From contig CAMQYZ010000001.1 in NCBI GenBank assembly GCA_947039505.1, positions 1-64,000 on the forward strand: DNA of 64,000 bases, read 5' to 3'. Origin of the DNA: an uncultured Mycoplasma sp. (GTDB lineage: Bacteria; Bacillota_I; Bacilli_A; Mycoplasmatales; Metamycoplasmataceae). Made by a program: the position numbers and the translations under genes. Of this stretch, positions 2,344 through 55,816 are shown in pieces (the stretch's first letter is position 1; each line of letters starts with the position of its first letter). A model generated the notes under the pieces. The model saw only the letters and a list, made by a program, of their open reading frames with translations. It did no database searches and was not told the origin of the DNA.

Positions 2344-4419
2344 ATGATAAAAAAAGAAATATTAATTACTGAAGATAATTTGGAATTACGAATCAAAGAA
2401 TTTTTGTCTTCATTAAAGGAAGATTACTTTAAATTCAATATGGAGTGAAGTGAAGAATTTACTGATTGAAGTAAAATTATTGAAGCTAAAACAGAAAAAA
2501 AGGTAGGTTTCATCCCTGAAAAAGTTCTTCTAAGATCTCCGATAACAATTTTAAATGCTCCCTGGGGAACTGGAAAAACTCATTTCATTGAAACAATGGG
2601 TAAAATGATTATTCAAGGAAAGATTACTGAAGAAGAATTATCACATACAAAAAATAATGAATTTAAATTTAAAATAAGTAATTTCATCATTATTGATATG
2701 TGAAAAATTTGTAATTATGAAAATGCTGTTGAGCAGATTTTTAAACAAATTATTTCTAAAATATTACCTTTGGATGAAGATGATTTAATGAAAGAAATTA
2801 GTGAGAAAAAATGGCCTAAAATTAAAAATTGATTTTGGGCTTTGCCTTCATTAATAAAGGGCAATATTGGGTTTTCTGACGAAGGATGAAAGTCAACTTT
2901 TGAGCTTGACATAATGAATTTTTCACAAACCCGAGATAAACTATCTGAAACTCAAATGCAAAATGATTTAAATGAAGTTAAAGATATAGTGAATATTTTA
3001 GTGGAAAATCACCTAAAAAAAGATAGTAAAGAAAAAACTTTAATTTTTTTTGATAACATTGAGAGACTCGGCCCTTTTGCGTGAGAAGTTATCAAAATAA
3101 TACAAAAACTTCAAGAATTAAATAACTTAATTATTATCTTTGCCATGAATAAAAATGGTCTTGTAAATCAAACTAATACAGCAACTAAAGACAAATACTT
3201 TGAGTCACATATGGAAAAATATTTAAATATGGATTATTATAATTTGCAACAAGATTATCTTGGTGTTTTATCAAAATCAAAAATTAAAAGTGAAAACTTG
3301 ATTATTTTAGATGAATTTTTTAACCATGAAATGTTAGGAAAGAAAAAATCAATTAGAGAGATGAAGAAGATAATTGAAAATGATGTTGTTATTAATAATT
3401 TTTCCAAAAATCAAATATTTGGAATACAGTCAATAATTAGAATTATTTCTTGAAATGACTCTTCAGCTGAAATGACCTCGGAAACATCTAGATATTTAGA
3501 ACAATTTATAATAGGGAAGTTTGGTGATTTTTTATTATTCATTAACAAGTTGGAAAACTGACAAAAAAATATGTTTGAACATGATGTTTGAAAAAAAGTC
3601 AAATTTACTCAACAAAAGGAAGATAACCCTTACAGCTATAATCTTCGGTATGATATTTACTATAATAGCTATATTCAACTTCATAAAAGTTCTCAAGATA
3701 TTTTTCAAAACATTAAACATTTCAATAGTTCTAATAATTTAAATATGAAATTATTGAAATATGTTATTTTTGATTGAATTGAGTTATTTAAAAGCACAGA
3801 AAATTTACTTGATTTACAGTTAAAAAATTGCTTAACATTATTTGAAAAAATTAATATTATTGCATTAGAAATAACGAAAATAAATCTTGAAATTGATATC
3901 TATAAGAAAAGCATTTTTAATAAAAATGAAAAAATAAATGATTTTAAGCAATTGCAATCTCCTACTGAAAATGAAATTTATGAAAATTCCATAAACAAAA
4001 ATACCATTGAATCAACACAAAAAATAATTTTTGATAAAAGTAATCTTTCACAACAAAAAAATCAACAAATCAAGAACATTCAAACAGAATTATTGACTAT
4101 GTGCTTATTTTGATCAAGTTTTAAAAATGAATGAACTAAAGAATTGTTTGAAAAAGAATTTTTAAACAATGTTAATGAAATCAAAACATTTTTTTCATAT
4201 GAAAAAACTGAATATTTGAAAATATTTGAAAATTTAAATAATGAAGATAAACTTATTTTTGATATTCTAAAAAACAATGAAGAGAATTTGAAGGACATAA
4301 TTATAGATGATTCTTTTATTAATAGCAAATGATTTGGTGGTGATGGTAATAAATTCAAAAATATTTTTGAATTTTTTGATATAGAATTTGAAAAATATGA
4401 AAAAAATCTTAGTTTTTAA
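2344..4419 (+). CDS. KAP-family P-loop NTPase (691 aa)
   Basis: One frame runs from ATG 2344 to TAA 4417-4419 with many TGA-Trp codons. A Walker A motif APWGTGKT is at residues 72-79, and a Walker B-like strand LIFFDNIERL has its Asp near residue 237. The wording NAPWGTGKT, a long insert, then FFDNIERL is typical of KAP P-loop NTPases, a family linked to phage exclusion (PifA) and found in defence loci. The C-terminal ~350 residues are Lys/Asn/Glu-rich and probably helical. I see no convincing membrane helices, although many KAP proteins have them. It stands alone on the plus strand, opposite the HNH gene, so the two may work as an NTPase-nuclease pair (inference). A STAND or other AAA-like ATPase is the main alternative. 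Confidence 0.72.
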
Positions 4420-4689: not shown

Positions 4690-5721
4690 ATGAAGCAAGA
4701 TACAAAATTTAGTAATGAAAATAAGGTTATTTTTTGCAGATTGGATTGATATAGTTATTATGATGGAAATGAACCGATAAATGAATCAAATAATACTGAA
4801 AGAGGATTGCAATATGAACGATTTAATTTCAAAAAATATAATGATGTACATTTAGGTTATGTAAACGTTCCTGGATCAGCAGGAATTAATATTAAAAAAT
4901 TAAAACCAAATTCAGATAATGCATTTGTAATATTTTTTGCCCAAAATCCAAATACTAAAAAGTTTGTAATAGTTGGATTTTATAAAAATGCAAAATGTTA
5001 TCCTAAACAAGAAAAGAAATTATCTTTAGAAGATGATGGAATTTTTTGCTTTAAAGCAGAAGTAAATGATAGTTTTCTTATCCCTATTAAAAAAAGAACT
5101 ATTGACATGATAGGTAGTTCTAGAAATGGAATTGAAGGCTCGTGAGGATATCAATCTTGAATTTGATATGCCGATAAACTCGAACCTGAAGGAAAAACAA
5201 CAAAATGAATTGACTCTACAGTGCAAAAGTTGCTATTAATGAAGGAAAATTATGATTCAACAAAGATTGAAGAAGATGATGCAAAATTTCAAATGTTAAT
5301 TAATGAAGAACCTATTGAAAATATTCCTCACAAAACACTTACATCTTCTAGAGAAGCATATACTAGATCTCCAAAAATTTCTAAGGAAGGGATTGTTGCA
5401 GCTAATTATTTATGTGAATATAACAAAAATCACATAACATTTATAAGTAAGACATCTAAAAAACAATTTGTAGAAGCTCATCATTTAATACCAATGTCTA
5501 AGCAAGAAATTATTTTAAATAAAGATATGCAGAATAACGGTAATATTGATATTGTTGAAAACATTGTTTCTTTATGTCCTAATTGTCATAAAAATATCCA
5601 TTTGGGAACTGATAATACTAAACTGATAGAAAAACTATATGAAAAGAAAATTCATAAACTAAGGAGTAAGGGTTTTGACTTAACTCTTATAGAACTTAAT
5701 TCTTTTTATAATATTAAATAA
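4690..5721 (+). CDS. HNH endonuclease with N-terminal sensor-like domain (343 aa)
   Basis: The start ATG at 4690 follows AAGGAG by a good spacing, and the frame ends in TAA at 5721. The C-terminus carries a clear HNH nuclease: EAHHLIPMS (H264, H265) and ENIVSLCPNCHKNIH (C296, C299, H300, H304), the McrA-like arrangement. The N-terminal ~110 residues form a small domain (FCRLDWYSYYDG near the start, then VIFFAQNPNTKKFVIVGFYKNA) that resembles domains placed in front of HNH in putative modification-dependent (type IV) enzymes. A role in cutting modified foreign DNA is inferred. The gene converges with the SIR2 gene with only one base between the two stop codons, so the pair may have moved together. 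Confidence 0.78.
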
Positions 5722-5722
5722 T

Positions 5723-8700
5723 TTAACTTGAATGTTCTTTGCATAAAAAATCATCTGAACCACTTGAAATATTTTCTATTATTTTTTCATAATTATTTGT
5801 GAAAAAGTGATTATCTTTCAAATTTTTAATTTCTTTTAGCAGTTGAGGTTTTGTCAATGAAAGCAAGCAAAATTTAAATTTATACAATTCTTCTTCAATG
5901 TTGCTTTGTTCTTTTTTTGTTCTATTTTTAAAATTTATAAAGTCATTGATAAGTTTTCTGTATTTTTCAGAAATTAATTTTTTTGGAATATTTTTATTCT
6001 TTAGTGAATTATGAATATTTTGCAACATTTTAATATTTTCGTTTTTCAAATCAAAATCTGATAATTTCATAAATATTTCTCATAAATATACGAAATCTTC
6101 ATCATTTATATTTACATTAAATTTATTTTTATCTTTGTTATAAAATTTCTTATATATTATTGTTAATTCAAATAATATAAAATCTTCTCTCCCTGATTCA
6201 ATAAGAGTCTTTTTGTCATTAAATATCATATTGTATAATAAATTAGTTCCATCATAATGCTTTGTAAGAAAAAGTCTTTTGTATCAATATCTAATCGAAA
6301 TAATTTGTGAATAATTATCCATCAAAATAATATTGCTATTTTCGGATTTATAATTTAGATTTTCTAAAAAATTATTTAAATTATCAAATTCATTGTCACG
6401 AAACTTTCATTCTCCTTCTTCGTAAAACTTTGTATTTTCAGGTGAAAAAGAATCAAAATGACAGTACAAACCTTTCTTTCAAGTGCTAATGTTGTTATCT
6501 AAAAAAACATTTTCAAATAATTTTCTTAAATTATTTTTATAGTTTTCATCACCATTTTTTATGCAATCAATTATTTTTTCTATCAGTTTTGGCAAATCTT
6601 TAGAATTATCAAAAATTTGTTGTCATATTTTTAAAAAATATAGAACTTGTGAACTATCTTCACCATTTGTTTTGAATGTATCTCCAAAAATATAAAATAT
6701 ATTTCCGGAATTTATATTTAATAGATCAAATAACTGATTAAATAAGAATAATGATTCAACGTTTTCTATTTTCGAAAAATCATCTCATTCAATCATTTCT
6801 AATTTTATTAAATTATTAAATTTTTCCATATGATGACCATTTAAATATTTTTCTTCAAAATAGGATACCAAGAATTTGTCTAATTCTAATATTGATATTT
6901 TTTTATTATCTTCAACATACTTTTCGATAACCATTTTTATGAAAAAATTTCATTCATTTCAAGGTGATTTTTGAATTGTTTCCTCAAATTCTAAGAATGT
7001 TTTTGATATATTATTCATCTTTGTTTTTCAATTTTCCATTTTAAAAATTTCAAAAAGCTTAGATTTAATAATTTTAATTTTTTCATTTTCGTTTTCAATA
7101 TAACCTTTTAAATCTTTTTCATTTTTTATCTGCTTAAATATTTCGCTAAAATCATTGTTCTTTCATTTTTTTTCATAATATTTTAAGTCGTCTTTAATAA
7201 TCTTATTTCCATCAAACGAACGAATAATTCCGCCAGTTGATTCAACAAATTTTCTTATTTTACCTCTGTATTTACGATTGATAAAAAGCTCATTAATTAT
7301 TGAGGAATAGTTATGAAAACCTGAATAATAATTTAACAAAAAATTTGTTGATAGTAAATCAAATTCATCATCTGGATTAAACTTCTCAAAACTTGATAAA
7401 GCAATATTCTTATTATTCTTAGCATAAGGACGAAATACATATTTCATAAAATCAAAATCATCAAGATACATCCTTACATTTTCATTTTTTAGGTTTTTAT
7501 TACTTCCTACAAAATCAATATTTGAAATGAGCTTTAAATCAGGGATTAATTTTTCAATTACATTAGTTAAATTATTTATTTCCAAAAAATGTGTTATGAA
7601 AATTATTAATTTTTTTCTATTTATAAAATCACCATATTTATAATTTGTTTCTTCAATTTCAAACTCTTTTATGAAACGTTCATAATCTATTTTAATTTTA
7701 AATTTATTTAATTTTTTTACAAAAAACACACCTTTATCAAAAAGGGAATCATCAGAATTAATTTGTTTAAAAAAATTATTAAGAATCAAATAACGTTCTT
7801 CTTCTTTGGAATTATTTAAATTTGAAAAAAAATCATTAAAAAGTTTCAACCATTTTTTTTCTTGACGTAAAAAATAAATATAGTTATTGGCAAAATTTTT
7901 AAATTTAAATTTATCATTAATTAAAATGTATTTTAAAAAATCTTTAAAATACATTTGTTTATTTTTATTAACATCTTCAGTTTGAAAAATATTTCAAAAA
8001 TCTTGATCTTTTTCATAATAATATAAATATATGTTTCTTGCGTATTTACCAATATTTTCATTATCTTTTTTTCATAATAAAATAGATAAGAAATGATTTT
8101 TATTATATATCTTAAAGGGGATATCTTCATTATTAACCCTCTTATTAATTATCTTATCTATTTGTTTAAATGTTTTTCCAAAAACATAGTTTTCTATTTT
8201 AGTAATTTCATTAATTATCTTATAATTTTCTTTATTATAATAATCTGATCAGTCAATAGGTTTTGGCGAATAATAACCACTTATGCTCTGCTCAATATTC
8301 ATAAAAAATAAATCATTACATTCATCAATGCAATCATTTTTTTTAGCTCTTTTAATGCATGTTGAAATATAATTGAAACCCCGAGATTTTAAAATAGAAT
8401 AAATTTTAGGATTAATTTTATTATGATTAATATAAAAGTTGTCATTGTTGCTCTCATAAGTATTGGTTATAAAACTAATGAGATGTTTTTCTTCCATGCT
8501 TGATCCAAATATAATAATAATATTTTGTTTTATATTATCTTCCATTTCTTTAAATAAATTAAAAAGATATTTATATTTGTCTAAAAATAATTCATGATAT
8601 TCATCTGTTTTTATTATTTGTGTTTTGCTCTCTAAAGACCCATGAAGGTTGATAACAACTTCTTCTTTGTTATAAATTTCTTTAAATTTATCTAAATCTA

Positions 8701-9127
8701 TATCTTTTACATCGAAACTAAAATTTTGATTTATATCAAAATATTTTTTGATACTTTGACAATGATTGGTGGTTATAAATTTTGTTAATATATTTCTATT
8801 TGTTATAATTTGATCATAAAATTTTTTTAGACCAAGTTTATGTAGATCTTTTTTTTGTTCATTAATTGATGTTGAATAAAATTGGTCATTTTCCTCTGCA
8901 TAATCTATAATTAATTGAATTTCAAAATTACTTAAATTAATATATTTATTCTTAAATTTATCTTTTATGTAATTTTCTGCTAACTCTTTCCATAATGGAA
9001 CATCATATACATGCTTAGAAAAACCAGCTCCAAGCATAAAAACAACTTGTGATTTTACATCTTTTCTTTTCATATCTTTTAATAAAGTGATTAAATATTT
9101 GATATTCTTTTGATTTTCTTTATTCAT
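5723..9127 (-). CDS. Large SIR2-domain protein, probable defence NADase (1134 aa)
   Basis: I followed the reverse frame codon by codon from ATG 9127 to TAA 5723-5725; only TGA (Trp) codons interrupt it. Residues ~25-230 show SIR2 signatures: MLGAGFS (G33-S37), ITTNHC (118-123, where TTN is usually followed by x-D), INLHGS with the likely catalytic His162, and IIIIFGSS (G208-S210). SIR2 domains in phage defence (ThsA, DSR1/DSR2, SIR2-APAZ) degrade NAD. The remaining ~850 residues are a helical, Lys/Asn/Phe-rich region with no domain I can name, as expected for the sensor part of a DSR-like protein. Single-gene abortive infection by NAD depletion is inferred. The length is close to DSR2 (~1000 aa). 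Confidence 0.8.
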
Positions 9128-9404
9128 AACTTTATTAAATTATATATAACTTAAATTAAATAATCTATATTTAAAATATTAGAAATATAAATAATTTGAA
9201 AAATATGACAAGACTTTAAAACATATTAACAATATCTAAAAACATACACATTAATTGATTTAACAATCATTATAAATAAATTTAATAGCAACACATTAGT
9301 CAGATTAAATCTCATCCTAAATCTTTCTAACAACATTGATTATAATTTGCAACCAAATAGAAAATGCTGCTTTATGTAACAAAATCAAGAACTTAATAAA
9401 TTAA
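9128..9404. other. Intergenic spacer upstream of the SIR2 gene
   Basis: No gene is seen. It should hold the promoter of the minus-strand SIR2 gene, and the sequence just upstream of its ATG has only a weak TAAAG-like ribosome site. Confidence 0.35.
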
Positions 9405-9906
9405 TGACTTAAAGAATGTTTAAAAATTAAATCTAAATCCAACAAGTGTAGTAGTGTATCAATTTCATATGAAGTTTTAAATATTAAGCCATTTGAAACA
9501 ACAATAAATGTAATGATAAAACTTTTCAAAAAAACTAAAAATAATTTTATTGAAAATGAAGAAATTTCTAATTTTATAACTATAGCCACAAAAGATGTTA
9601 CAGATGATGAGGTAGTTTCCGTTGTGTTGAATTATAGAAAAGATTCTACAATATTAAAAAATCAAATTAAGGAAAATAGATTTAATTTAACACTCTCTTT
9701 GTTTGAAGGAATAGAAAATAATGTTGATAAAGATAATATTGCAAAATATATTGTAAACTCAAGTCAAAAGACTACAAGAAACCCTGAATTGTAAAAACTA
9801 TTTAGAAATGAATTAAAAATTAAATTTATTGAAACTTGGGCATTTTGTTTATTAAAAGGAGACAAAAATAATTATTACCTCTCACATTAAAATTGTAAAA
9901 GAATAG
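9405..9906 (+). pseudogene. Decayed HNH endonuclease fragment
   Basis: A frame open from 9405, with ATG at 9513, reads to TAA at 9792-9794 just after KTTRNPEL. In the same frame the sequence continues KLFRNELKIKFIETWAFC and YYLSH, and a one-base shift then gives KIVKE. This order (RNPEL, FR..L...F...C, SHIK) is the usual lead-in to the His of HNH restriction proteins. The rest of the HNH core is missing. I read it as a dead, truncated HNH gene with one nonsense mutation and one frameshift. The alternative is an intact 93-aa hypothetical protein at 9513-9794. Confidence 0.4.
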
Positions 9907-10262
9907 TTTTTATTTTGCCTTATAGAATGTCATAATAAGTCTTTTTCTGAAGTTTCTGGATTTTTAAAGTGGTCTATAATAATTCCTTTATTAATTACTT
10001 ATACAAAAACATAACATCGATTTATTATTTTAATTTAGCTATCAAATATATTAATATTTGTTTGTTAAAATTTGTCATTTATAGATTCAAAAAGCTCTTT
10101 GCAAAAGACCATGCATTTTTTTGCTTGAATGGAAAATAATCAGAACTAAGAGATGGTGGAGATAAATTAACAAATTAGTGATTATTTAAATTAATTCTTA
10201 ATTACTCTTCTAATCAAAGATAATAACAAACCCTCAAACATAATAATGTATAATTATTTAAT
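9907..10262. other. Gene-free spacer
   Basis: Nothing coding is convincing here. The sequence TATAATTATTTAATATG immediately before the next gene gives it a very short leader, with no clear ribosome site. Confidence 0.4.
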
Positions 10263-11436: not shown

Positions 11437-11596
11437 TCTAAATTACAAACTTATCTTTACTCAAGCAAAAGCACTAATAATTTTCCTCATTTTATGAAAT
11501 TTTCTCTTATTTTTAATCAATACATTAACACGATAAACTTACAAATATAATTCTTAGATATTTAGTTTTCATAATATTTATCATATAATTAAATGT

Positions 11597-12606
11597 ATGT
11601 CAAAAAAAGAAAATACAAAAATTTTTAAAACACTAGAAGAAGTTCAAGACTGAGCATTTAAAATGATGAAAAAAAAGGAATATTACATCTATAGAGGACA
11701 AGGTGATAGTTCATGGTCATTGAATTCTGGGTATTCACGAATACTAAATAGTAAAATGAAATATAAAGATGAAGTTGAAAAATTTGAATTTATTAAAAGA
11801 ACATTTATACAAAAAATTGAATTTCTTAAAAAACAAATAGATAATATGAAAGATTTGCACTATTAGGAGAAATGCAACATCATGGTCAAGTAACCCCTTT
11901 GATAGATTTTACTGAAGATATCTTAGTCGCTTTATGATTTGCAGCTTCACACATCGATGACATCGAAGATACATCTAAAGATAAAAAAAGTTTTCGAATT
12001 TATTACCTAAAACAAGAAGAGGGAAGCTATAAAAATGAGCTTGATATTGAAAAAATTAAAATAAATGAAATTCAAACTTTTAAATTTAATACTGGTCAAC
12101 AAATTGGAAGATCTATTAGTCAAAAGTCTATTTTTATTTTTGATAGTATAAACCTAGATACAAAAGTTGAATATATTGATGTAGAGAATAGCTTTGTTTT
12201 AAAATTAGATATTATTTCTTGATTAAAAAAATTAGGAATTGATTCTATGTCAATATATCCAGACATAGAGGGAGTTTTCAAAAGTTTTGATTTTGTAGGT
12301 CCTGATCAACTTTTAAAAAATGGATTGAAATTATTTGAATCAAAAAGATTTGAAGAGTCAATCGAAAAATTTAAAGAAGTTATAAAGATTGATCCAAATA
12401 ATATTAATGCTTATTTGTCTTGAGGGGGTGTTTTGGGTTTGTTAGAGAAATTTGAAGAAGCGATTGAGAAATTTGAAGAAGCTATAAGGATTGATTCAAA
12501 TTATGCTAGTGCTTATTTTGGTTGAGGGACTGCTTTAGATGCATTAGGAAAAACTAAAGAAGCAAAGGAGAAATTTGAAATAGCAAAAAAATTATCTAAA
12601 AATTAA
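11597..12606 (+). pseudogene. FRG-domain protein with C-terminal TPR repeats, frameshifted
   Basis: From ATG 11597 the frame encodes IYRGQGDSSWSLNSGYSR (from residue 31), the hallmark of the FRG domain, then stops at TAG 11864-11866. From about 11851 another frame continues the FRG domain (LLGEMQHHGQVTPLIDFT, then ILVALWFAA) and ends with two TPR repeats at TAA 12604-12606. The domain is therefore cut by a single indel near 11850. FRG domains occur in prophage and defence-island proteins; their activity is unclear. The break could be natural decay, a reversible slip, or a sequencing error. The downstream part alone could start at ATG 11872. The TPR tail resembles the one at the left edge of the window. 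Confidence 0.7.
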
Positions 12607-21498: not shown

Positions 21499-24024
21499 TT
21501 AAACTGGGTAGATGTTTTGGGTAGTTGTGTCTTCATCATCTTTATTTCTTATTTTTTTAACTGTATAAACAAGAAGAAATATACTAGGTGGTATTATTAA
21601 AACAAATAAAACAGAAGATACAATAATTAATGTCAAAGAAAGGGTTGATTCAGTTTTTTCATATATTCATTGTATATTTTCATATTGATCACTAGAAAAA
21701 CCATAAAGTTCATAATTTGGTGTATCAAATTTATCATACATATATATTTCATTCAATAAAACAGTTGAAGCAAAAGCATTATGTTGAATAACTTCAACAG
21801 ACTCAGGGATTTCAATTTTTTTGATATTAGTTCCTTGGAAAGCACGAGTAGAAATAGTATGTAATTGAGAATCTTTGGCAAAGTATATTGATTGTAAAGT
21901 TGAATTTTCAAACAAATCATCTGATAATATTCTTATATTATCAGGAATATAAATTGTTTTAATAGATTTGTTATTTTGTCAAATTCCTGGTTCAATCTCT
22001 ACTACATTAGGAGCTTTTGCAGCTCAATCATCCAAAGTAATTACTTCCTTATTGGCTCATCCAATTTGTTTAAAAATATCTGGAGTTAATAAAGTAACAT
22101 CGGTTGTAGGGGGGTGAACTCAATTAATTTTATCTCATTGAAATTGTGTAAATCCAAAATTGATCAATTCTCTCTTAAAACGAAATGGAAGTGTTATATC
22201 CATTAATTTTCTTGTATTACTAAAAGCATTAGAAGCAATTTTTTCCATATTATTAGAAATATTTATTTTTTTAATAATTGTGTCACCAAAAGCCAATGCT
22301 TGTATTTCCACAACATTGTTAGGAATATTTACTTCTTCTAATCCACTATTTCTAAACAAAGAATCTTCAATAACTTGCAATTGCTCAGGAAGCGCTACAG
22401 AAGTTAATAATGAATTTTCAGCAAAAGCTCCACCATTTATAACAGAAACTCCAGGAGGAATAATTATAGAAGATATTGCAGTTTTTCTAAATGCATTAAA
22501 ACCAATACTAGTTAAATTTGAATTTGTTGCAAAAACTGCCTTTTTTAAATTTGATGCTTCAAAAAAACTACTATTACCAATAGATTTTATTTGACTAGGA
22601 ATTTCAATGAATGATAATTTTTTTTGATTTTGAAATGCACCAGAAATTATTGTTACATTTGGAGCATAAGTTGCTCAATCTGCCAAAGTTATTGTTGTTG
22701 ACTCATGTCAATTAATACTAGCTGCTGCCACTTTATCTAATTCGGTTCCTAAAAAAGGAGTAAATGCATAAGTTCAAACAATTGCATCTCATTGTGGTTG
22801 AGTAAAACCCAAATACTCCATACCCTTATCTCTGAAATCTACAGGTATTGAAATATTTACAAGTTTTCGAGCATTTTTAAAGGCATTTTCTCCAATAAAA
22901 CCAACACTTTCAGGAATTTTTATAGATTCTATTTGAGATTCTGAAAAAGCACCCGTACTTATAACAGAAACTGTAGAAGGAAGAACTATAGAAGATATCG
23001 CATTTCCTTTAAATGCATTAAAACCAATGGTACTTAACTTAGAATTTGGTTCAAAAATTATTGTTTTTAAATTTGTTGCTCCATCAAAACTATTATCACC
23101 AATTGTTTTTAATAAACCAGGGATTTCAATAGAAGTTAAAATTTGGTTGTTTAAAAAAGCACCTGAAATTACCGTCACATTTGGAGCAAAAGTTTCTCAA
23201 TCTGATAAAGTTATTACTGACTTCTTGTCTCAATCCAGATTTGAAATTTCTACTGTATCTAATTCAGTTCCTAAAAAAGGTGTGTAAATTCACTCAATTG
23301 AATTTCATTGAGTTTGAGTAAAACCAAAATATTGCATACCCTTAGCTTTAAAACGAATAGGCATTGAAATATCTACAAGTTTTGCAGTATTTTTAAATGC
23401 TTCTTTTCCAATATGCATAACACTTTTAGGTATTTTGACAGATTCTATTTGTGAATTATCAAAAACATTATCACCAATAGATTTCAATGTTGAATCTGGT
23501 TCAAATGTAAAACGCTTCAAATTAGAATGAGCAAACGCCATATCTCCAATATTTTCTAGTTGTTTTGGAATAATGAAATTTTCTATAATTCCTGTATTTA
23601 AAAATGCAATAGTTTCAATTGATTTTAATAAAGAACCAGGTTCAAAAGTTATAGAGGTTAAATGTAAATTTTGTTGAAAAGAAGATTGACCAATTATTTT
23701 GATAGATGCAGGAATTTCTATCGAAACCAATATAGAGTTAGCAAATCCTCAACTAATTTCTTCCACATTGGGAGCTTGAGCTTTTCAATCACTTAAAGTT
23801 ATATGTTGTTTTTCATGTCAACCAAGAGATTGAACAATTTCTTGTGTTAAAATTTTTGAAGTTGTAGTTGGGATGTTTTTTATACTTTCTTGTTCTTTAA
23901 AATTATTTTGAATATCATTATTATTATTCAATTTGATTGTTTCAATATTAACTAGTGCACTTGGAATTGCTAAAATTGCCAAAGATGACAAACCTACTAT
24001 TGATAATGGGATTATTTTTTTCAT
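21499..24024 (-). CDS. BspA-like leucine-rich-repeat surface protein A (841 aa)
   Basis: One minus-strand frame runs from ATG 24024 to TAA 21499-21501, with many TGA-Trp codons. A hydrophobic signal (MKKIIPLSIVGLSSLAILAIPS) without a lipobox Cys leads into four or five modules of ~150-170 residues. Each module begins like ITLSDW..APNV and contains LRR_5-type repeats (SIEIPASIKIIGQSSF, IKIPESVGFIGENAF). Most end in GFTQ.QW. A C-terminal transmembrane helix and a charged tail (RNKDDEDTTT) anchor it. BspA-type repeats bind host proteins in other bacteria; adhesion is inferred. It is last in a six-gene array and starts 5 bp after gene B. Confidence 0.88.
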
Positions 24025-24029
24025 TTTAA

Positions 24030-25760
24030 CTATACACTCGCTTCTGATGTTACATCATTATTTTTATTTTTTTTCACTTTAAAAACATAAACAACAACAC
24101 CCAAAATAGATATTAAAACCACTGCCGAGATAACAGAAGCTACTATAATACTTGTTGAAGAATTCATTTTTATTCATTTTATATTTTCTAATTGAGAATC
24201 AGAAATACCAATAAAACTATAATTTTGTTTAAATTTACCATCAATAATAATCTCACCTAACATAGAAGTTGAAGCAAAGGCATTTTCTTCAATAATTTCA
24301 ACAGACAAAGGAACTTTTATTTTTGTTATGTTACTTCCTTGGAAAGCACGAGTAGAAATGACATGTAATTGAGAATCTTCAGTAAAGTATATCGATTCTA
24401 AAGATGAATTTTCAAACAAATCATTTGACAATATCTTTATATGACTAGGTATAACAATTGATTTAATAATTTGATTATTTTGTCAAATTCCATCTTCAAT
24501 TGACACCACATTTGGGATATATTTATTTCAATCTTCTAAAGCAATTACTTCCTTATTGGTTCATCCAATTTGATAAGCCACTTCTTTAGTTAATGAAGTA
24601 ATCTCGTCTGGTTGTTCTGGTTCAGGATTTACAGGAGGATTAGATCAAGAAATTTTGCTTCATTGTTCTTGTGTAAAACCAAAATTTGGTAATTCAGTTT
24701 TAAGATGATATGGAAGTATAATATCTTTTAATTTAGTTGTATTGCTAAAAGCGTTTAATCCAATAGCACTTAATTTAGAACCAGGTTCAAAAGTTACTTT
24801 ATTTAAATTTATTGCTCCATTAAATGTATTATCACCAATTAATTCTACCTTATTAGGAATTTCAATTGAAGTTAAAACTTCGTTGTTTCAAAAAGCACCT
24901 GAAATTACCGTCACATTTGGAGCAAAATTTTCTCAATCTGATAAAGTTATTACTGACTTCTTGTCTCAATCCAGTTTTGAAATTTCCACCGCATCTAATT
25001 CAGTTCCTAAAAAAGGTGTGTAAATTCATTTGATTGAATTTCATTGAGTTTGAGTAAAACCAAAATATTGCATACCCTTATCTTTAAAATGAACAGGCAT
25101 TGAAATATCTACAAGTTTTGCAGTATTTTTAAATGCTTCTTTACCAATATGCATAACACTTTTAGGTATTTTGACAGATTCTATTTGTGAATTATCAAAA
25201 ACATTATCACCAATAGATTTCAATGTTGAATCTGGTTCAAATGTAAAACGCTTCAAATTAGAATGAGCAAACGCCATATCTCCAATATTTTCTAGTTGTT
25301 TTGGAATAATGAAATTTTCTATAATTCCTGTATTTAAAAATGCAATAGTTTCAATTGATTTTAATAAAGAACCAGGTTCAAAAGTTATAGAGGTTAAATG
25401 TAAATTTTGTTGAAAAGAAGATTGACCAATTATTTTGATAGATGCAGGAATTTCTATCGAAACCAATATAGAGTTAGCAAATCCTCAACTAATTTCTTCC
25501 ACATTGGGAGCTTGAGCTTTTCAATCACTTAAAGTTATATGTTGTTTTTCATGTCAACCAAGAGATTGAACAATTTCTTGTGTTAAAATTTTTGAAGTTG
25601 TAGTTGGGATGTTTTTTATACTTTCTTGTTCTTTAAAGTTATTTTGAACATCATCATTATTATTCAATTTCATTGCTTCAATATTAACTAATACACTTGG
25701 AATAGTTAAAATTGCCAAAGACGACAAACCTATTATTGATAATGGGATTATTTTTTTCAT
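24030..25760 (-). CDS. BspA-like LRR surface protein B, chimeric (576 aa)
   Basis: The frame runs from ATG 25760 to TAG 24030-24032. Layout is as in protein A: signal segment, two full LRR modules plus a C-terminal module, a short Pro/Glu linker (EPEQPD), then a transmembrane helix near the C-terminus and a K-rich tail. The N-terminal ~290 residues are almost identical to protein A (the segment ending GFTQTQ differs at only a few positions). The part from SIEIPNKVELIGDN onward matches protein C. This is the product expected if a tandem duplication fused the start of A to the end of C. It is cotranscribed with A and C (5-bp gaps). Confidence 0.88.
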
Positions 25761-25765
25761 TTTAA

Positions 25766-27526
25766 CTATACACTCACTACTGATGCTACATCATTGTTTT
25801 TATTTTTTTTCACTTTAAAAACATAAACAACAACACCCAAAATAGCTATTATAGCCACTACCGAGATAACAGAAGCTACTATAATACTTGCTGAAGAATT
25901 CATTATTATTCATTTTATATTTTCTAATTGAGAATCAGAAATACCAATAAAACTATAATTTTCTTTAAACTTATCATCAATAATAATTTCATTTAACATA
26001 GAAGTTGAAGCAAAGGCATTTTCTTCAATAACTTCAACAGACAAAGGAATTTCAATTTTTTTGATATTACTTCCTTGGAAAACACGAGTAGAAATGGCAT
26101 GTAATTGAGAATCTTCGGTAAAGGATATTGATTCTAAAGATGAATTTTCAAACAAATCATCTGACAATATCTTTATATGACTAGGTATAACAATTGATTT
26201 AACAATTTGATTATTTTGTCAAATTCCATCTTCAATTGACACCACATTTGGGATATATTTATTTCAATCTTCTAAAGCAATTACTTCCTTATTGGTTCAT
26301 CCAATTTGATAAGCCACTTCTTTAGTTAATGAAGTAATCTCGTTTGGTTGTTCTGGTTCGGGTTGTTCTGGTTCTGGTTGTTCTGGTTCAGGATTTACAG
26401 GAGCATTAGATCAAGAAATTTCGCTTCATTGTTCTTGTGTAAAACCAAAATTTGGTGATTCAGTTTTAAGATGATATGGAAGTATAATATCTTTTAATTT
26501 AGTTGTATTGCTAAAAGCGTTTAATCCAATAGCACTTAATTTAGAACCAGGTTCAAAAGTTACTTTATTTAAATTTATTGCTCCATTAAATGTATTATCA
26601 CCAATTAATTCTACCTTATTAGGAATTTCAATCGAAATTAAAGCTTTGTTGTTTAAAAAAGCATTTGAAATTGTTGTCACATTTGGGAGCATATTTTTTC
26701 AATCTGATAAAGTTATCACTGATTTCTTGTCTCAACCAAGTTTTAGAATTTCCTCTTGATTTAAATCAGTTCCTGAAAAAGATGCATCATCTCATTTTAT
26801 TGCGTCTCATTGAGTTTGATTAAAACCATATTTTGCAACATTATCACCCTTAAAACGAATAGGCATTGAAATGTTTGTAAGCTTGTTAGTATATTGAAAT
26901 GCATTTTCGCCAATACTTTTAGTAGATTCAGGAATATATATTGACTCTAATTCAGAATTTCCAAAAGCATTTTGACCAATACTTTCAAAAGTAGAATTTT
27001 CCTCAAATGATATATGTTTAATTTTAGAGTGAGAAAAGGCATTCTTTTGAATTCTGTCTAATAGTCTTGGGAAAACAATTGATTTTGTATTTCCTGAAAA
27101 TCAAAATGAACTATCACCAATAGTATTTAACTTAGAACCAGGTTCAAAAGTTACAGAAGCTAAAGAAGTAGCCATATAAAAAGAATGATAATCAATAACT
27201 CTTACAGATGCAGGTATTTCAATTGAAACTATTGCAGCACCAGCAAATGATCCGTCCATTACATCTACATTTGGTGCCATAGTTTTTCAATCATCTAATG
27301 TAATTGTTTCTTTAGTATGTCACCCTAAACTACGAACAATTTCATTTGTTAAAACTGTTGATTTAGTAAATTTAGACATTGAAGAATCTTTTTGATCTTG
27401 AATATTGTTTTTAACAACTGTGTTCAATGCATTGTTTTTTGTCACTTCACTATTTAATCCACTTGGAATCGCTAAAATTGCCAAAGATGACAAACCTACT
27501 ATTGATAATGGGATAATTTTCTTCAT
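25766..27526 (-). CDS. BspA-like LRR surface protein C (586 aa)
   Basis: The frame runs from ATG 27526 to TAG 25766-25768. The same signal (MKKIIPLSIVGLSSLAILAI) is followed by LRR modules starting ITLDDWKTMAPNV and ITLSDWKNMLPNV, a linker with three PEPEQ units encoded by a 15-bp tandem repeat, a third module (ITS..KEVAYQIGWTNKE) and a C-terminal transmembrane helix with a short basic tail. No lipobox is present, so anchoring is by the C-terminal helix. The 5' half is unique, while the 3' half is duplicated in protein B. The gap to B is 5 bp and to D is 81 bp. Confidence 0.88.
26348..26392. repeat. 15-bp tandem repeat (three units) in gene C
   Basis: Three units of TTGTTCTGGTTCNGG (26348-26362, 26363-26377, 26378-26392) encode PEPEQ units on the minus strand. 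The matching place in gene B has one unit. Copy number can change without a frameshift, so this is an in-frame VNTR in a surface-exposed linker. Confidence 0.85.
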
Positions 27527-27607
27527 ATTTTATATAACCTAATAAACTTTCTCTTAAATATTTCCTAAATTATAACAAAAAAAATATTTAAATATCAAAA
27601 TTGCAAA

Positions 27608-28933
27608 TTATTTTTTTAGTTTTTTAACAACATACACAACAACAATTGAAATAGGTATTATAGATACCAATAAAACAATCATTACTATAAAATTAGTTGA
27701 ATTTTTTTCATCAGAAGTTGGCGGAATTATTGGTGATGTTATTGATTCATTGATTCATTTTATATTTTTATATTGAACATCAGAAAAACCAAAAATTTTA
27801 TAAGACTCTTGAAATTTATAGTCCATAGAAATATCATTTAGCATCAAAGTTGAAGCAAAAGCATTTTTTTCAATAACTTCAACAGACAAAGGAATTTCAA
27901 TTTTTTTGATTTTACTTCCTTGGAAAACACGAAGAGAAATAGTATGTAATTGAGAATTTTCAGTAAAGTATATTGATTCTAAGGTTGAGTTTTCAAACAA
28001 ATCATTTGGCAATATCTTTATATTATCAGGAATAACAATTGATTTAATAAATGAATTTTGTTGCCAAATTCCTGGTTCAATATCCACTACATTTGGAGCA
28101 TATTTATTTCAATCTTCCAAAGTAATATTGTTTTTTTCATTTCATCCAATTTGCCCTACAATATCCTTAGTTAATAAAGTGGCATCAGTTTTGGAAGGAT
28201 GAAATCAATTAATGATGTTTCACTGTTCTTGTTTAAAACCTAAATATTCCATACCCATTTCTTTAAAACGAATAGGCATTGAAATATCTACAAGCTTTTC
28301 GGTATTCTTGAATGCATCTTGACCAATAATCTTAATAGATTCAGGCATTTTTATAGACTCTATCATATTGTTTTCAAATGCTAAATTCCCGATCTCAATC
28401 AATTTAGATTCTGACTCAAATGATAGTTGTTTAACACTACCACCACTAAATGATGATTGACCCAATCGTTCCACTTTTTTTGGAACAATAAATGTTTCTG
28501 TTATAAGACCAGTAAATGCAAAGTCATCAATAGTGTGCAACAAAGAATCAGGTTCGAAAGTTACAGAATTTAAATAACCAGTATGAAAGGATTTTTTTCC
28601 AATAAATTGAATAGATGAAGGTATTTCAATTGAAATTAAATTGCTTGCTCAAAAAGCATTATCATCAATAGAAATAATATTGGGCGCCATAGTTTTTCAA
28701 TCATTTAATGTAATATGTTGTGCATTAATTCATCCTAATTCATTAGCAATATCTCTAGTTAAAACTGTTGCTTCAGTTTTACGACTTGTAGAATGATTTT
28801 GTTTTTGAATACTATTTTCAACAATTAAATTTTGAATTTTGCTATTGTTTATTTGATTATTAATCAATACCATCGGAATTACTGAAATGCCTAAAAATGG
28901 TAAAATGATTAGAGATGCGATTGTTTTTTTCAT
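27608..28933 (-). CDS. BspA-like LRR surface protein D (441 aa)
   Basis: The frame runs from ATG 28933 to TAA 27608-27610. The signal segment differs (MKKTIASLIILPFLGISVIP). Two LRR modules follow: one starting ITLNDWKTMAPNI and ending GFKQEQW, and one starting ITLEDWNKYAPNV with SIYFTENSQLHTI and a final GFSDVQ. A linker rich in Ser/Pro, a transmembrane helix and a KKLKK tail end the protein. It is shorter than its neighbours. It lies upstream of C on the same strand, and a gene relic related to its 5' part lies ~120 bp upstream at 29055-29215. Confidence 0.88.
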
Positions 28934-29054
28934 TTTATAAAAATATTCTTTCTAATTTATTTTTCTAAATTTTAACACAAATATTAGAAAAATAAATTTA
29001 TATTAATCTAGCTAATCAATACTTCTAATCATAAAGAAAGTAAATAATAAATAT

Positions 29055-29215
29055 CAAAGGATTTGCTTCCAATAAATTAAATAAATGTAAATATTTAAGT
29101 TGAAATAAAATTGCTTTTCCAAAAATAGTTCTCATTAATAAAAAATAATATTTGGTGTCATGAAAATTTAATTATCTAATCTAATGTGTTGTCATTTATA
29201 ACAATTAATTTTGAT
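29055..29215 (-). pseudogene. Relic of a seventh BspA-like gene
   Basis: The sequence aligns by eye with the 5' part of gene D (~28585-28740): CCAATAAATT, TTTCAATTGAAAT-type text (here AAGTTGAAATAAAATTGCTT), ATTTGGTGTCAT and TCTAATGTGTTGT all have counterparts in the same order. The reading frame is destroyed by indels and stops. I read it as a decayed copy left between D and E. Confidence 0.6.
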
Positions 29216-29251
29216 CATCTACATTAGTAAATCACAAAACAAAAAATTATA

Positions 29252-31072
29252 CTAATCTAATTTACGAATTCCTTTAATAATAAAAATCATAACAATTCCT
29301 TGAAGCAAAATAAAAGCAGATAATGATGACATCAAAATAACAAATCCAGTACTAAAACCTGCATTAATTCAACTTATTTTATTTCATTGTTCATCAGATA
29401 AACCAAAATGAACAAGATAATCCTGAAATTTTAATGGCATTTTAATATTATTTAATATAGTATTTCTAAAAGAATTCTCATCCATAAAAATAACACTATC
29501 AGGTATTTTTATTGATTTCAAAGATGAACCAAAAAAAACATCTTCTTCAATAATTCTTAACTGAGAATTTTTTTCAAATACTACTTTTTCCAATGACTTA
29601 GTATTTTTAAAAGAATTTGTTTGAAAATTAAAAATATAATTTGGTATTTCAATAGATTTTAAAGTTTCATTATTGGCAAAACCAGCATTAATAGTTTCAA
29701 TATTTGGTGCCATGGCTCTTCAATCTGCTAAAGTTATTATTGTTTTTTCTTCTCAACCAATCAATGCTAAAATTGAATTATTAAATTCAGTTCCTCAAAA
29801 TGGTGCATAAACTCATTCAATTAAATTTCATTGAGCTTGTGTTCAACCATATTTTAACGAATTATCTCCCAAAAAGATTCTAGGCATAATAATATTTGTA
29901 AAATTTGATGATACAAAAGCAGTTGATGAAATTGTTTCAACAGTTAATGGAACAACTATTTCAGTGAGTTTAGTTGTTCCGTTAAAAACATTACTTCCGA
30001 TTTCTTTTAATCCAGAAGGCAGTATTAAATTCTCTAGATTTACAGAACCGCTAAATAACTGATCAGAAAGTTTTTTAATATTAGGAGGTATTGTTATTGA
30101 TGCAAGAGATAACATGTTTGAAAATGCAGCTTTATTAATTTCCAAAAGAGAACTTGGTAAATCAATAGTTGCTAATCCACTATTTTGAAAAGATCAAGCA
30201 CCAATGCGTGATAAAATACTATCGGCTTCAAATTTAATAATTTTTAAATTTGTTGTATTTTTAAAAGCTTCTTGTTCAATAGCAAAAATGGTTTTAGGAA
30301 TATCAATTCTAGTTAAAATTTCATTATTTTCAAATGCACTTCCGATAATCGTAACATTTGGCGCCATAATGTTTCAATCTTCTAAAGTTATAATTGCTTT
30401 TGTGTCAAAACCTATATTTCTAACTTCATTATTATCTAATTCAGTTCCTAAAAATGGATCAAAGACAAATTCAATTAAATTTCATTGTAGCTGTGTCAAG
30501 CCTCACCTATGTGTTCCATCTAAAAAAATTAAATCATGATTCATTTTAATTTTTGTTAAATTAGGAGTATTTGAAAATACTTGACTTCCATTAATAGATG
30601 TAACAGAAGGAGGAACAATAATAGATTCAATCTTACTATTTTTAAATGTAGCATTTTCTATAGAAGTCAATTTTGATTCATCTTGGAAAGTTATAACTTT
30701 TAGACTTGAATCAGAAAAAACACCCATATCCATAGTTGTTATTGAATTAGGTATAATTATCTCCTCTATAATAAGATTGCTTTTAAATGTATTTTCAGCT
30801 ATATGAACAACATTTGGAGCCATAGTTTTTCAATCATCCAAAGTTATTGATTGCTTTGCATTTCAACCCAATGCCTCAACTTCAACTTGACCTAATATAG
30901 TTCCTAAAAATGGCGTATTAAATAATTGAATTGAATCTGATTGAATCTGTGTTATTTTTTGGTTGTTTTTATTTTCTTCATCAATACTCAATATACTATT
31001 TGTTAACGAGATAAGCGGAATGGAAGCAATAACAACAATAGGGATATGGATAAATATTTTTTTCATTTTCAA
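29252..31072 (-). CDS. BspA-like LRR surface protein E (606 aa)
   Basis: The frame runs from ATG 31072 (an alternative ATG is two codons in) to TAG 29252-29254. A signal segment (KKIFIHIPIVVIASIPLISL) precedes three LRR modules, each opened by ITLDDWKTMAPNV-like text and containing repeats such as IPNSITTMDMGVFSDSSL and LPSSLLEINKAAF. A C-terminal helix (FVILMSSLSAFILLQGIVMI) and a short basic tail anchor it. The sequence is more diverged from A-C than they are from each other, although its last module is close to that of F (SLKSI.IPDSV.F..ENSFRNT). Confidence 0.86.
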
Positions 31073-31183
31073 AATTCACTTTCTTATTTAAAATTTGTTT
31101 TAAAATATTTTTAAATATTAACAAAAAATAACAATTAATTATAAATTTTAACAAAAAAATAACAATAATGAAATTATTATTTT

Positions 31184-32839
31184 TTATTGCTTAATTTTGT
31201 TGAGGGATTTAGTAACATAAATTAAAATAACGGTTTGAATTATTAAAAGTAAAACCAATGATGACATTACAGTAATAAATTTAATATTTACTGCATTATT
31301 ATTTCAAATAATATTATTGTATTGTTCATTAGATAAACCAAATTTAACAAGATAATTTTGAAATTTTAAAGGCATTTTAATATCATTTAATTCAGTATTT
31401 CTAAAAGAATTTTCATTTATAAAAACAACACTATTGGGTATTTGTATTGATTTTAAAGATGATTCTGAAAAAACATCCTCTTCAATAATTGTTAGTTGAG
31501 AATTTATTTCAAATATTATTTTTTTTAAAGATTTAGTATTTTTAAAGGAATTGTTTCCCAATTTTATAACACTATCAGGAATTTTAATATTAGCTAATTT
31601 AATCAGTCCTTCAAATGCATTATCATTTATTGAAATAACACTGTTCGGAATATTTATATTTTCTATTTCACTTGAATTAGAAAATAAACTTTTCTCAATG
31701 ACTTTTAATTCATTAGGTAAAGTTACATATTTCAACATATTATTATTAGCTAACCCAAAAGCACCAATAGTTTTTACTGAATCAGGAATGACAACTGATT
31801 CAATTAAGGTATTATTTATTCCGTAATCACCAATGCTAACAAGTTGTGAATTGTTTTGAAATTCTAAATAAGTTAATTTGCTAGCAGTAATGCCTCTTGC
31901 TCCAATGCTAGTAATTTTTGACGGAATAACTAAACTTTCTAAAATATTATTATTTTCAAAACCTCCTTGAATTGAAGTAACGTTTGGCAACATTGTTTGT
32001 CAATCTTCTAAAGATATTTTAGTTTTTTTGTCTCAACCTACATGCAAAAAAACTTCATTCGTTAAGATGGTTTCATCTGGTTTTTCTAAACCAAGTCATT
32101 TAACTATTTTTTCTTGTTCTGTTGTTAATCCGATGAAACTAGCTTTATCCTTAAAATTATAATATAGCGATATGTCTGTCAATTTAGTTGTACTAGAAAA
32201 TACTCCAGAACCCAAAGTGGTTGTTGATTTAGGAACAATTATTTTTGTAAGACTTGTATCATCAAATGCTTTGGATTCAATCGTTGTTAATTGAGAATCT
32301 GGTGCAAATGTAACTTCATTTATTGATTTAGAGTACCTAAATGCATTTTCTCCGATTATTTTTAGACTAGAAGGAAGTTGAATATTTACCAAAGAAGAAT
32401 AAGCAAAGCATTCTAGGTCAATTCGCTCCAATTGAGATCCAGCTTCAAAAATCATTTCTTTAATTCCTGTTTGTTGAAATGCTCCATGTTGAAATATTTT
32501 TATTTGAGCTGGAATTTCAATTTTTTTCACTTTACTAAATGTTATAAATGCAAATTGACCCACAATAGAAACATTTGGTGCCATTGTTGTTCAATCATTT
32601 AATGTAATTATCGGTTTAGTATCTCACCCTAGATTACGAACAATTTCATTTGTTAAAACTGTTGATTTAGTGAATTTAGACACTGAAGAATCTTTTTTAT
32701 CTTGAATATTATTTTCAACCATTGAATTTGATACATTATTTTTTGTTCTTTGAATATCAATAGATACACTTGCAATCGGTAAAATTACCATGGGTAATAA
32801 AGATAAATTAGAATACAATAAATATTTATTTATCTTCAA
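31184..32839 (-). CDS. BspA-like LRR surface protein F, TTG start (551 aa)
   Basis: This is the first gene of the minus-strand array. The start is TTG at 32839, chosen because GGAGGT lies six bases upstream and no in-frame ATG fits. The stop is TAA 31184-31186. A signal segment (LLPMVILPIASVSI) is followed by the NEIVRNLGW motif shared with protein C, one module ending GLTTEQ, and a longer module with about eight LRR_5 repeats (SIGARGI, SVKTIGAFGL, SVISINDNAF, SVIKLGNNSF). A transmembrane helix and KSLNKIKQ tail follow. Its promoter must lie in the ~200-bp gap shared with ptsI. Confidence 0.86.
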
Positions 32840-55237: not shown

Positions 55238-55816
55238 ATGATTACAGATAGAATTTTTATTTCATCTTCAAAGAGTGATGAAGGTAGATATGCAGTTAGA
55301 GAATTAACTGAAGGACTTCGTAAAATAAAAAGAACACACGATTCTTTTCCTATAGATGATAAATTTGATTTCCCTACAATACAAGATAAAGAAGAAATTT
55401 TAAATAAGATTAGTGATTGTGGTGTTACCATTCTTTTATTGTCAAGTGATTTTTTGGAATACAATAGTTTTTTGCTAAAAAGAAATGACTTGAATCAATC
55501 TGCTTGAAATTATGAAGAGTTAAAAAGTTCTTTAATTTGAAACAAGGAAAAAATGCATAATTCAATAATTGTTGCTTATACTGATGAATTCTTCAAAAAA
55601 TATTTAGAAAAGCCACACTTATTTTCTTTTCCAATTATTCATGACAACATCAACAACATCAACAAACTAAGATCAAGTACTGTGGATAGCGACCATTATT
55701 TAGAAGTTTTAAGTTTAAATGAATTTTTATCTAAACCAAAACTATATTTAAATCGTGTTGATACAAGAAAAGTAAAACAATCAAAAATTGGTTTATACAA
55801 TTTAAAATTTTTATAA
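55238..55816 (+). CDS. Possible TIR/ThsB-like (DUF1863-type) protein (192 aa)
   Basis: ATG 55238 follows AAAGGAAA; TAA at 55814-55816. The start RIFISSSKSDEGRYA, the middle EEILNKISDCGVTILLLSSDFL and the following NQSAWNYEELKSS run in the order seen in TIR-like domains: beta-strand A, strand D with the LL(I/S)S, and the helix with W.YE. This resembles the TIR proteins of the Thoeris system (ThsB), which make a cADPR-like signal. The catalytic Glu would be in WNYEE. No ThsA neighbour is visible, but a SIR2 gene lies far away in the window. This call is weak and unproven. Confidence 0.4.

What the first reader, a model, noticed from the sequence alone, without database searches (positions are those of the whole stretch)
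5723..9127. A 1134-aa SIR2-domain protein with an unclassified ~850-aa C-terminal half
The SIR2 core (GAGFS, TTN, INLHGS, GSS) is at the N-terminus and followed by a long Lys/Asn/Phe-rich region without a recognisable domain. The size and order resemble the DSR1/DSR2 defence proteins, but TTNHC replaces the usual TTNxD. This could be an unclassified single-gene abortive-infection protein adapted to mollicute phages. It is hidden from standard-code gene callers by many TGA codons.
Basis: partly seen in the sequence, partly recalled or inferred. Interest (0 to 1): 0.82.

Follow-up and report, generated by a model that had tools for sequence, protein, structure and literature searches.

The report
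Orphan SIR2-domain protein in defence island
A wall-less bacterium carries a large single-gene protein whose front end is a SIR2 (NAD-binding) domain like those bacteria use against viruses, but whose long back half resembles nothing found so far and whose active site lacks one normally fixed residue; it probably acts as a phage-triggered NAD-destroying switch, which remains untested.

Summary
Window 5723-9127, minus strand, code 4, is one intact 1134-codon frame. Its first ~260 residues are a genuine SIR2_2 domain: Pfam 24.5 bits, exactly at cut-off; own profile 49.5 bits, no shuffle significant. It keeps G33, G35, W46, N121, H162, G208 and S210. The one invariant family position it loses is the nicotinamide-pocket Asp (DSR2 D135), here Cys123, a two-base change.

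The C-terminal ~850 residues have no detectable relative: none in 135 family genomes, 382 phylum genomes, plasmids, phages, IMG/VR or the pattern scans of GTDB contigs, and no Pfam, PADLOC, NCBIfam, PHROG or PDB match. It is not DSR1 or DSR2 by profile. AlphaFold without relatives failed for this half (pLDDT 38); only 'mostly helical' can be said.

The gene stands alone inside a hypervariable defence island. In one sister species the same slot holds restriction-modification genes, plus a small relic of a related SIR2 gene's 3' end. Best reading: a stand-alone SIR2 effector with its own sensor half, working like DSR2 but not a member, with reduced, altered or possibly lost NADase activity. 'Hidden from gene callers' is merely ordinary mollicute code 4. 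New variant of a known kind; moderate interest.

The parts
5723..9127 (-). Single-gene SIR2-domain protein, 1134 aa, code 4
8273..9127 (-). SIR2_2 domain, aa 1-285
   Evidence: Pfam PF13289; own profile 49.5 bits; alignments; weak AF2 model whose best PDB fold matches are DSR2 and ThsA
9017..9031 (-). GAGFS motif (aa 33-37), NAD-binding loop
   Evidence: G33 and G35 invariant in 22 aligned relatives
8990..8992 (-). W46, equivalent by alignment to DSR2 W59 (nicotinamide stacking)
   Evidence: DSR2 role from PMC10981675
8759..8773 (-). TTNHC (aa 119-123): N121 kept, Asp replaced by C123
   Evidence: Asp is 23/23 in relatives; codons AAT CAT TGT
8636..8653 (-). INLHGS (aa 159-164): catalytic-type H162
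   Evidence: H162 and G163 invariant
8498..8506 (-). GSS (aa 208-210)
   Evidence: G208 and S210 23/23
5726..8272 (-). C-terminal half, aa 286-1134, no detectable relative, predicted mostly helical
4690..5721 (+). Convergent HNH_2 endonuclease gene; stop codon 1 base from the SIR2 stop; not an operon partner
9293..9957 (+). Broken copy of an HNH gene upstream of the SIR2 gene; intact as L013 12673-13872

Best explanation
A stand-alone defence protein: an N-terminal SIR2 NAD-handling effector fused to its own long, fast-diverging, mostly helical C-terminal half. The C-terminal half most likely holds the SIR2 domain silent and senses an invader protein. On sensing, the SIR2 pocket opens and destroys or converts NAD+, stopping the infected cell, as in DSR2. 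Shown here: the SIR2 domain, retention of the Asn and His catalytic residues, loss of the pocket Asp, single-gene layout, and a slot in a variable defence island. Inferred: NADase activity, the sensing role, phage as trigger. The Asp-to-Cys change predicts weaker, altered or more tightly gated NADase activity than DSR2.
For: SIR2 homology (N-terminus versus another mollicute long SIR2 protein z=9). Catalytic N121, H162 and pocket W46 kept. Best fold matches of the weak N-terminal model are DSR2, ThsA and KomC (partly expected, since SIR2 relatives guided the model). Architecture of SIR2 plus a long helical half in one gene. Neighbours are HNH, AAA/KAP-like NTPase, SMODS fragment, GmrSD/DUF262, FRG, Abi_2. 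Sister genome G074 has restriction-modification genes in the same slot plus a relic of a related SIR2 gene.
Against: Pocket Asp, 23/23 in relatives, is Cys; D135A in DSR2 impaired activity (PMC10981675). No sequence or fold evidence that the C-terminal half is a sensor; its model failed (pLDDT 38). No PADLOC match. No experiment.
Confidence: 0.5

Rival explanations
1. Catalytically dead or repurposed SIR2 domain: it binds NAD+ or another ligand as a sensor or scaffold, and the C-terminal half is the effector.
For: The one otherwise invariant column it departs from is the nicotinamide-pocket Asp; Y122 is also His and the common Glu at 127 is Lys. Other Asp exceptions are rare in the survey (TTNYE in L089, TTNYT in L092).
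Against: All other invariant residues, including Asn121 and His162 and the pocket Trp, are kept; a dead domain free of selection would be expected to lose these too.
Confidence: 0.23
2. An NAD-consuming or ADP-ribosylating enzyme unrelated to phage, which happens to lie in a variable region.
For: No direct phage link; no relatives in phages or plasmids.
Against: Setting among restriction and abortive-infection type genes; slot exchanged with restriction-modification genes in a sister species; nearest characterised SIR2 relatives are antiphage.
Confidence: 0.12
3. A recently acquired gene now drifting toward loss, with no current function; the Asp-to-Cys change is an early inactivation.
For: Only 1 of 12 genus genomes has it; G074 shows a relic of a related copy; neighbouring HNH and FRG genes are broken.
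Against: 1134 codons stay open with intact motifs; two bases changed in one codon while the rest of the pocket is conserved.
Confidence: 0.1

Closest known systems
DSR2 (defence-associated sirtuin 2, Bacillus subtilis 29R, 1005 aa; PDB 8k98 and others)
   Same: One gene; N-terminal SIR2 with Asn (N133/N121), His (H171/H162) and Trp (W59/W46); long mostly helical C-terminal half
   Different: No profile match to Dsr2 at E<=10; C-terminal halves unrelated by sequence; D135 is Cys123 here; tail-tube sensing unknown
DSR1 (PADLOC models of 1227-1275 aa)
   Same: Size and SIR2-first order
   Different: No profile match in the window's genome at E<=10 with the one Dsr1 model run there; no PADLOC match at all
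ThsA of Thoeris (SIR2-SLOG)
   Same: SIR2 fold, pocket Asn and His
   Different: No SLOG domain detected, no ThsB-type neighbour found; twice as long
Unclassified 1330-aa SIR2 protein of another mollicute (L045 1988-5980)
   Same: SIR2 N-terminus clearly related (z=9), long C-terminal half
   Different: C-terminal half not significantly similar (z=1.2); keeps the Asp (TINYD)

Membership tests
SIR2_2 domain (Pfam PF13289) | Profile match at or over the curated cut-off | tested here: met
   24.5 bits at cut-off 24.5; own profile 49.5 bits
SIR2_2 domain (Pfam PF13289) | Conserved TTN-x-D with pocket Asp | tested here: not met
   TTNHC; Asp 23/23 in relatives
DSR2 | Match to the Dsr2 full-length profile | tested here: not met
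DSR2 | Homologous C-terminal tail-tube-sensing region | tested here: not met
   hhalign of aa 285-1134 against C-terminal halves of DSR2-like L053/L054, L055 and L096 at noise level; single-sequence query, so only detectable homology is excluded
DSR2 | Catalytic N133, D135, H171 and W59 | tested here: inconclusive
   N, H and W kept, D is C
DSR2 | NAD+ depletion triggered by phage tail tube protein | not testable with these tools
   needs biochemistry
DSR1 | Match to a Dsr1 full-length profile | tested here: not met
   all PADLOC models; one model, PDLC04166
ThsA (Thoeris) | C-terminal SLOG domain and ThsB partner | tested here: not met
   no SLOG match in Pfam or PADLOC; no TIR/ThsB gene among the neighbours scanned
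SPARSA (SIR2-APAZ), SIR2-HerA, Avs5 | APAZ domain plus pAgo; HerA partner; STAND ATPase | tested here: not met
   no such match in the protein or among the neighbours scanned

The most novel reading that the evidence does not exclude
A new stand-alone SIR2 immune protein with a sensor half unrelated to any described one, and a pocket in which Cys replaces the nicotinamide-binding Asp, giving changed NAD chemistry or a different product or gating.
Probability: 0.2. Interest if true: 0.7.

Novelty: new variant of a known kind. Interest (0 to 1): 0.42.

Why it matters
SIR2 effectors recur in many antiphage systems with different sensing parts. An orphan sensor half in a mollicute, together with a natural change at a residue thought needed for NAD cleavage, gives a direct test of how far SIR2 immune enzymes can vary, and points to an unsampled stock of SIR2-fused proteins (at least two other unrelated long forms in the same order).

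Tried and rejected
DUF4020 as the C-terminal domain: no match at E<=10 in the own genome. DSR1/DSR2 membership: no profile match. Weak hits of the genome search in the class and phylum (L002, L003, L004, L095): the three that were read lie in unrelated proteins (a radical-SAM-type protein, a metallophosphoesterase-type protein, PriA-like helicase); L095 was not read. Full-length tblastn alignment to L045 (E=4e-17 without composition correction) is carried by the SIR2 domain; the C-terminal part is at noise (z=1.2). AlphaFold on the full protein alone: pLDDT 38; its PDB matches (CRM1, FANCI, DSR2; none at E<=0.001) lean to helical solenoids but mean nothing firm. AlphaFold on the SIR2 part with 14 viral relatives: pLDDT 51, enough for the fold, not for pocket geometry. 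Promoter and terminator scans no better than shuffles. Chance-frame and single-sequencing-error explanations rejected.

Full report
What is there. The frame at 5723-9127 lies on the minus strand, starts with ATG and runs 1134 codons under code 4 with 13 TGA codons. Random sequences of the same composition and length (64 kb) give at most 181 open codons. The plus strand of the same stretch is full of stops in the frame read.

The front end is SIR2. Pfam SIR2_2 matches aa 116-230 with 24.5 bits, exactly its cut-off. A profile made here from 37 other SIR2 domains, with this protein left out, gives 49.5 bits (E 1e-14), and 500 locally shuffled copies give nothing significant. Against the SIR2 part of a 1330-aa protein from another mollicute (L045), the local alignment score lies 9 standard deviations above shuffles. 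In an alignment with 23 SIR2_2 domains of the phylum, the protein keeps G33, G35, T119, N121, H162, G163, G208 and S210. W46, common but not fixed, is also kept. A profile of this domain together with five relatives finds DSR2 in the PDB, which places N121, H162 and W46 opposite DSR2 N133, H171 and W59. That profile is dominated by its DSR2-like members, so it gives the correspondence of positions, not kinship to DSR2.

The active pocket departs from the family. The Asp two residues after Asn is found in 23 of 23 relatives, but here it is Cys123 (TGT; Asp would be GAT or GAC, at least two base changes). Tyr before it is His, and the common Glu at 127 is Lys. In DSR2 this Asp (D135) contacts nicotinamide, and D135A and W59A both impaired activity (PMC10981675). 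So the chemistry cannot be taken for granted. Among motifs surveyed, other departures were TTNYE and TTNYT. The viral relatives were fetched with a pattern that asks for Asp, so they do not add to this count.

The back half is an orphan. Residues 286-1134 match nothing in Pfam, PADLOC, NCBIfam, PHROGs or PDB sequences. The whole protein finds nothing by tblastn in plasmids or phages, and nothing in IMG/VR or GTDB contigs by pattern scan. The back half finds no true relative in 135 family genomes or 382 phylum genomes. Dsr1, Dsr2 and DUF4020 profiles give nothing in the genome at E<=10. Profile comparison with C-terminal halves of DSR2-like and other long SIR2 proteins is at noise. Prediction from the single sequence failed (pLDDT 38, pTM 0.31); the secondary structure is mainly helical, and the unsafe Foldseek matches are mostly helical solenoids. 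I conclude only 'probably helical'.

Setting. The gene is alone: its stop lies one base from the stop of a convergent HNH gene, and upstream lies a broken HNH gene. Around it are an AAA/KAP-like NTPase, two HNH_2 genes, a SMODS-like fragment, a GmrSD/DUF262 gene, an FRG-TPR gene and an Abi_2-like gene. In sister genome G074 both flanks are present (97% on one side, 84-93% on the other), but the slot carries a C5-type methyltransferase, an N6-type methyltransferase-like protein and an intact HNH gene (types read from motifs in the translations; no family search was run on the two methyltransferases). It also keeps a relic that matches this protein's last 9 residues exactly and 31 residues near the end at 68%. 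The gene is found in 1 of 12 genus genomes. This is the behaviour of exchangeable defence cargo.

How it probably works. By analogy with DSR2 (PMC10973363), the C-terminal half senses and restrains, and the SIR2 part cuts NAD+. For this protein the SIR2 part and its Asn/His are shown; the sensing role, NADase activity and phage trigger are inferred. The Cys replacement lowers confidence and makes a dead or repurposed SIR2 the main rival.

Membership. It belongs to the SIR2_2 domain family with one defining residue missing. It is not a member of DSR1 or DSR2 by the tests available, nor of Thoeris, SPARSA, SIR2-HerA or Avs5. It may still work like DSR2.

Noticed in passing
L045 1988-5980: Another unclassified long SIR2 protein (1330 aa) in a different mollicute, no PADLOC match, C-terminal half unrelated to the window protein.
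   Followed up: partly
L046 1860-6124: A 529-aa SIR2 protein followed 35 bases later by an 879-aa protein without a convincing family match: a two-gene system or a split long SIR2 gene.
   Followed up: partly
L051 2597-5708 and L052 1404-3845: SIR2 next to HerA-like ATPase genes in two other order genomes, looking like SIR2-HerA systems.
   Followed up: no
window 2344-4419: AAA/KAP-like NTPase without a Pfam match over cut-off; a clear relative lies in sister genome G638 (L017 8849-10840).
   Followed up: partly
window 11497-12606: FRG-TPR gene broken in the window but intact (472 aa) in G074 (L013 15556-16974).
   Followed up: partly
window 21499-32839: Row of large paralogous leucine-rich-repeat-like surface proteins with signal-like N-termini and C-terminal membrane segments.
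   Followed up: no
window 55238-55816: 192-aa protein starting ITDRIFISSSKSDEGR, reminiscent of TIR/DUF4062 proteins, but no Pfam match at E<=0.01.
   Followed up: partly
L015 2208-3011: AbiH gene beside a methyltransferase on a short contig of genus member G640 that matches the window's 9911-9987.
   Followed up: no
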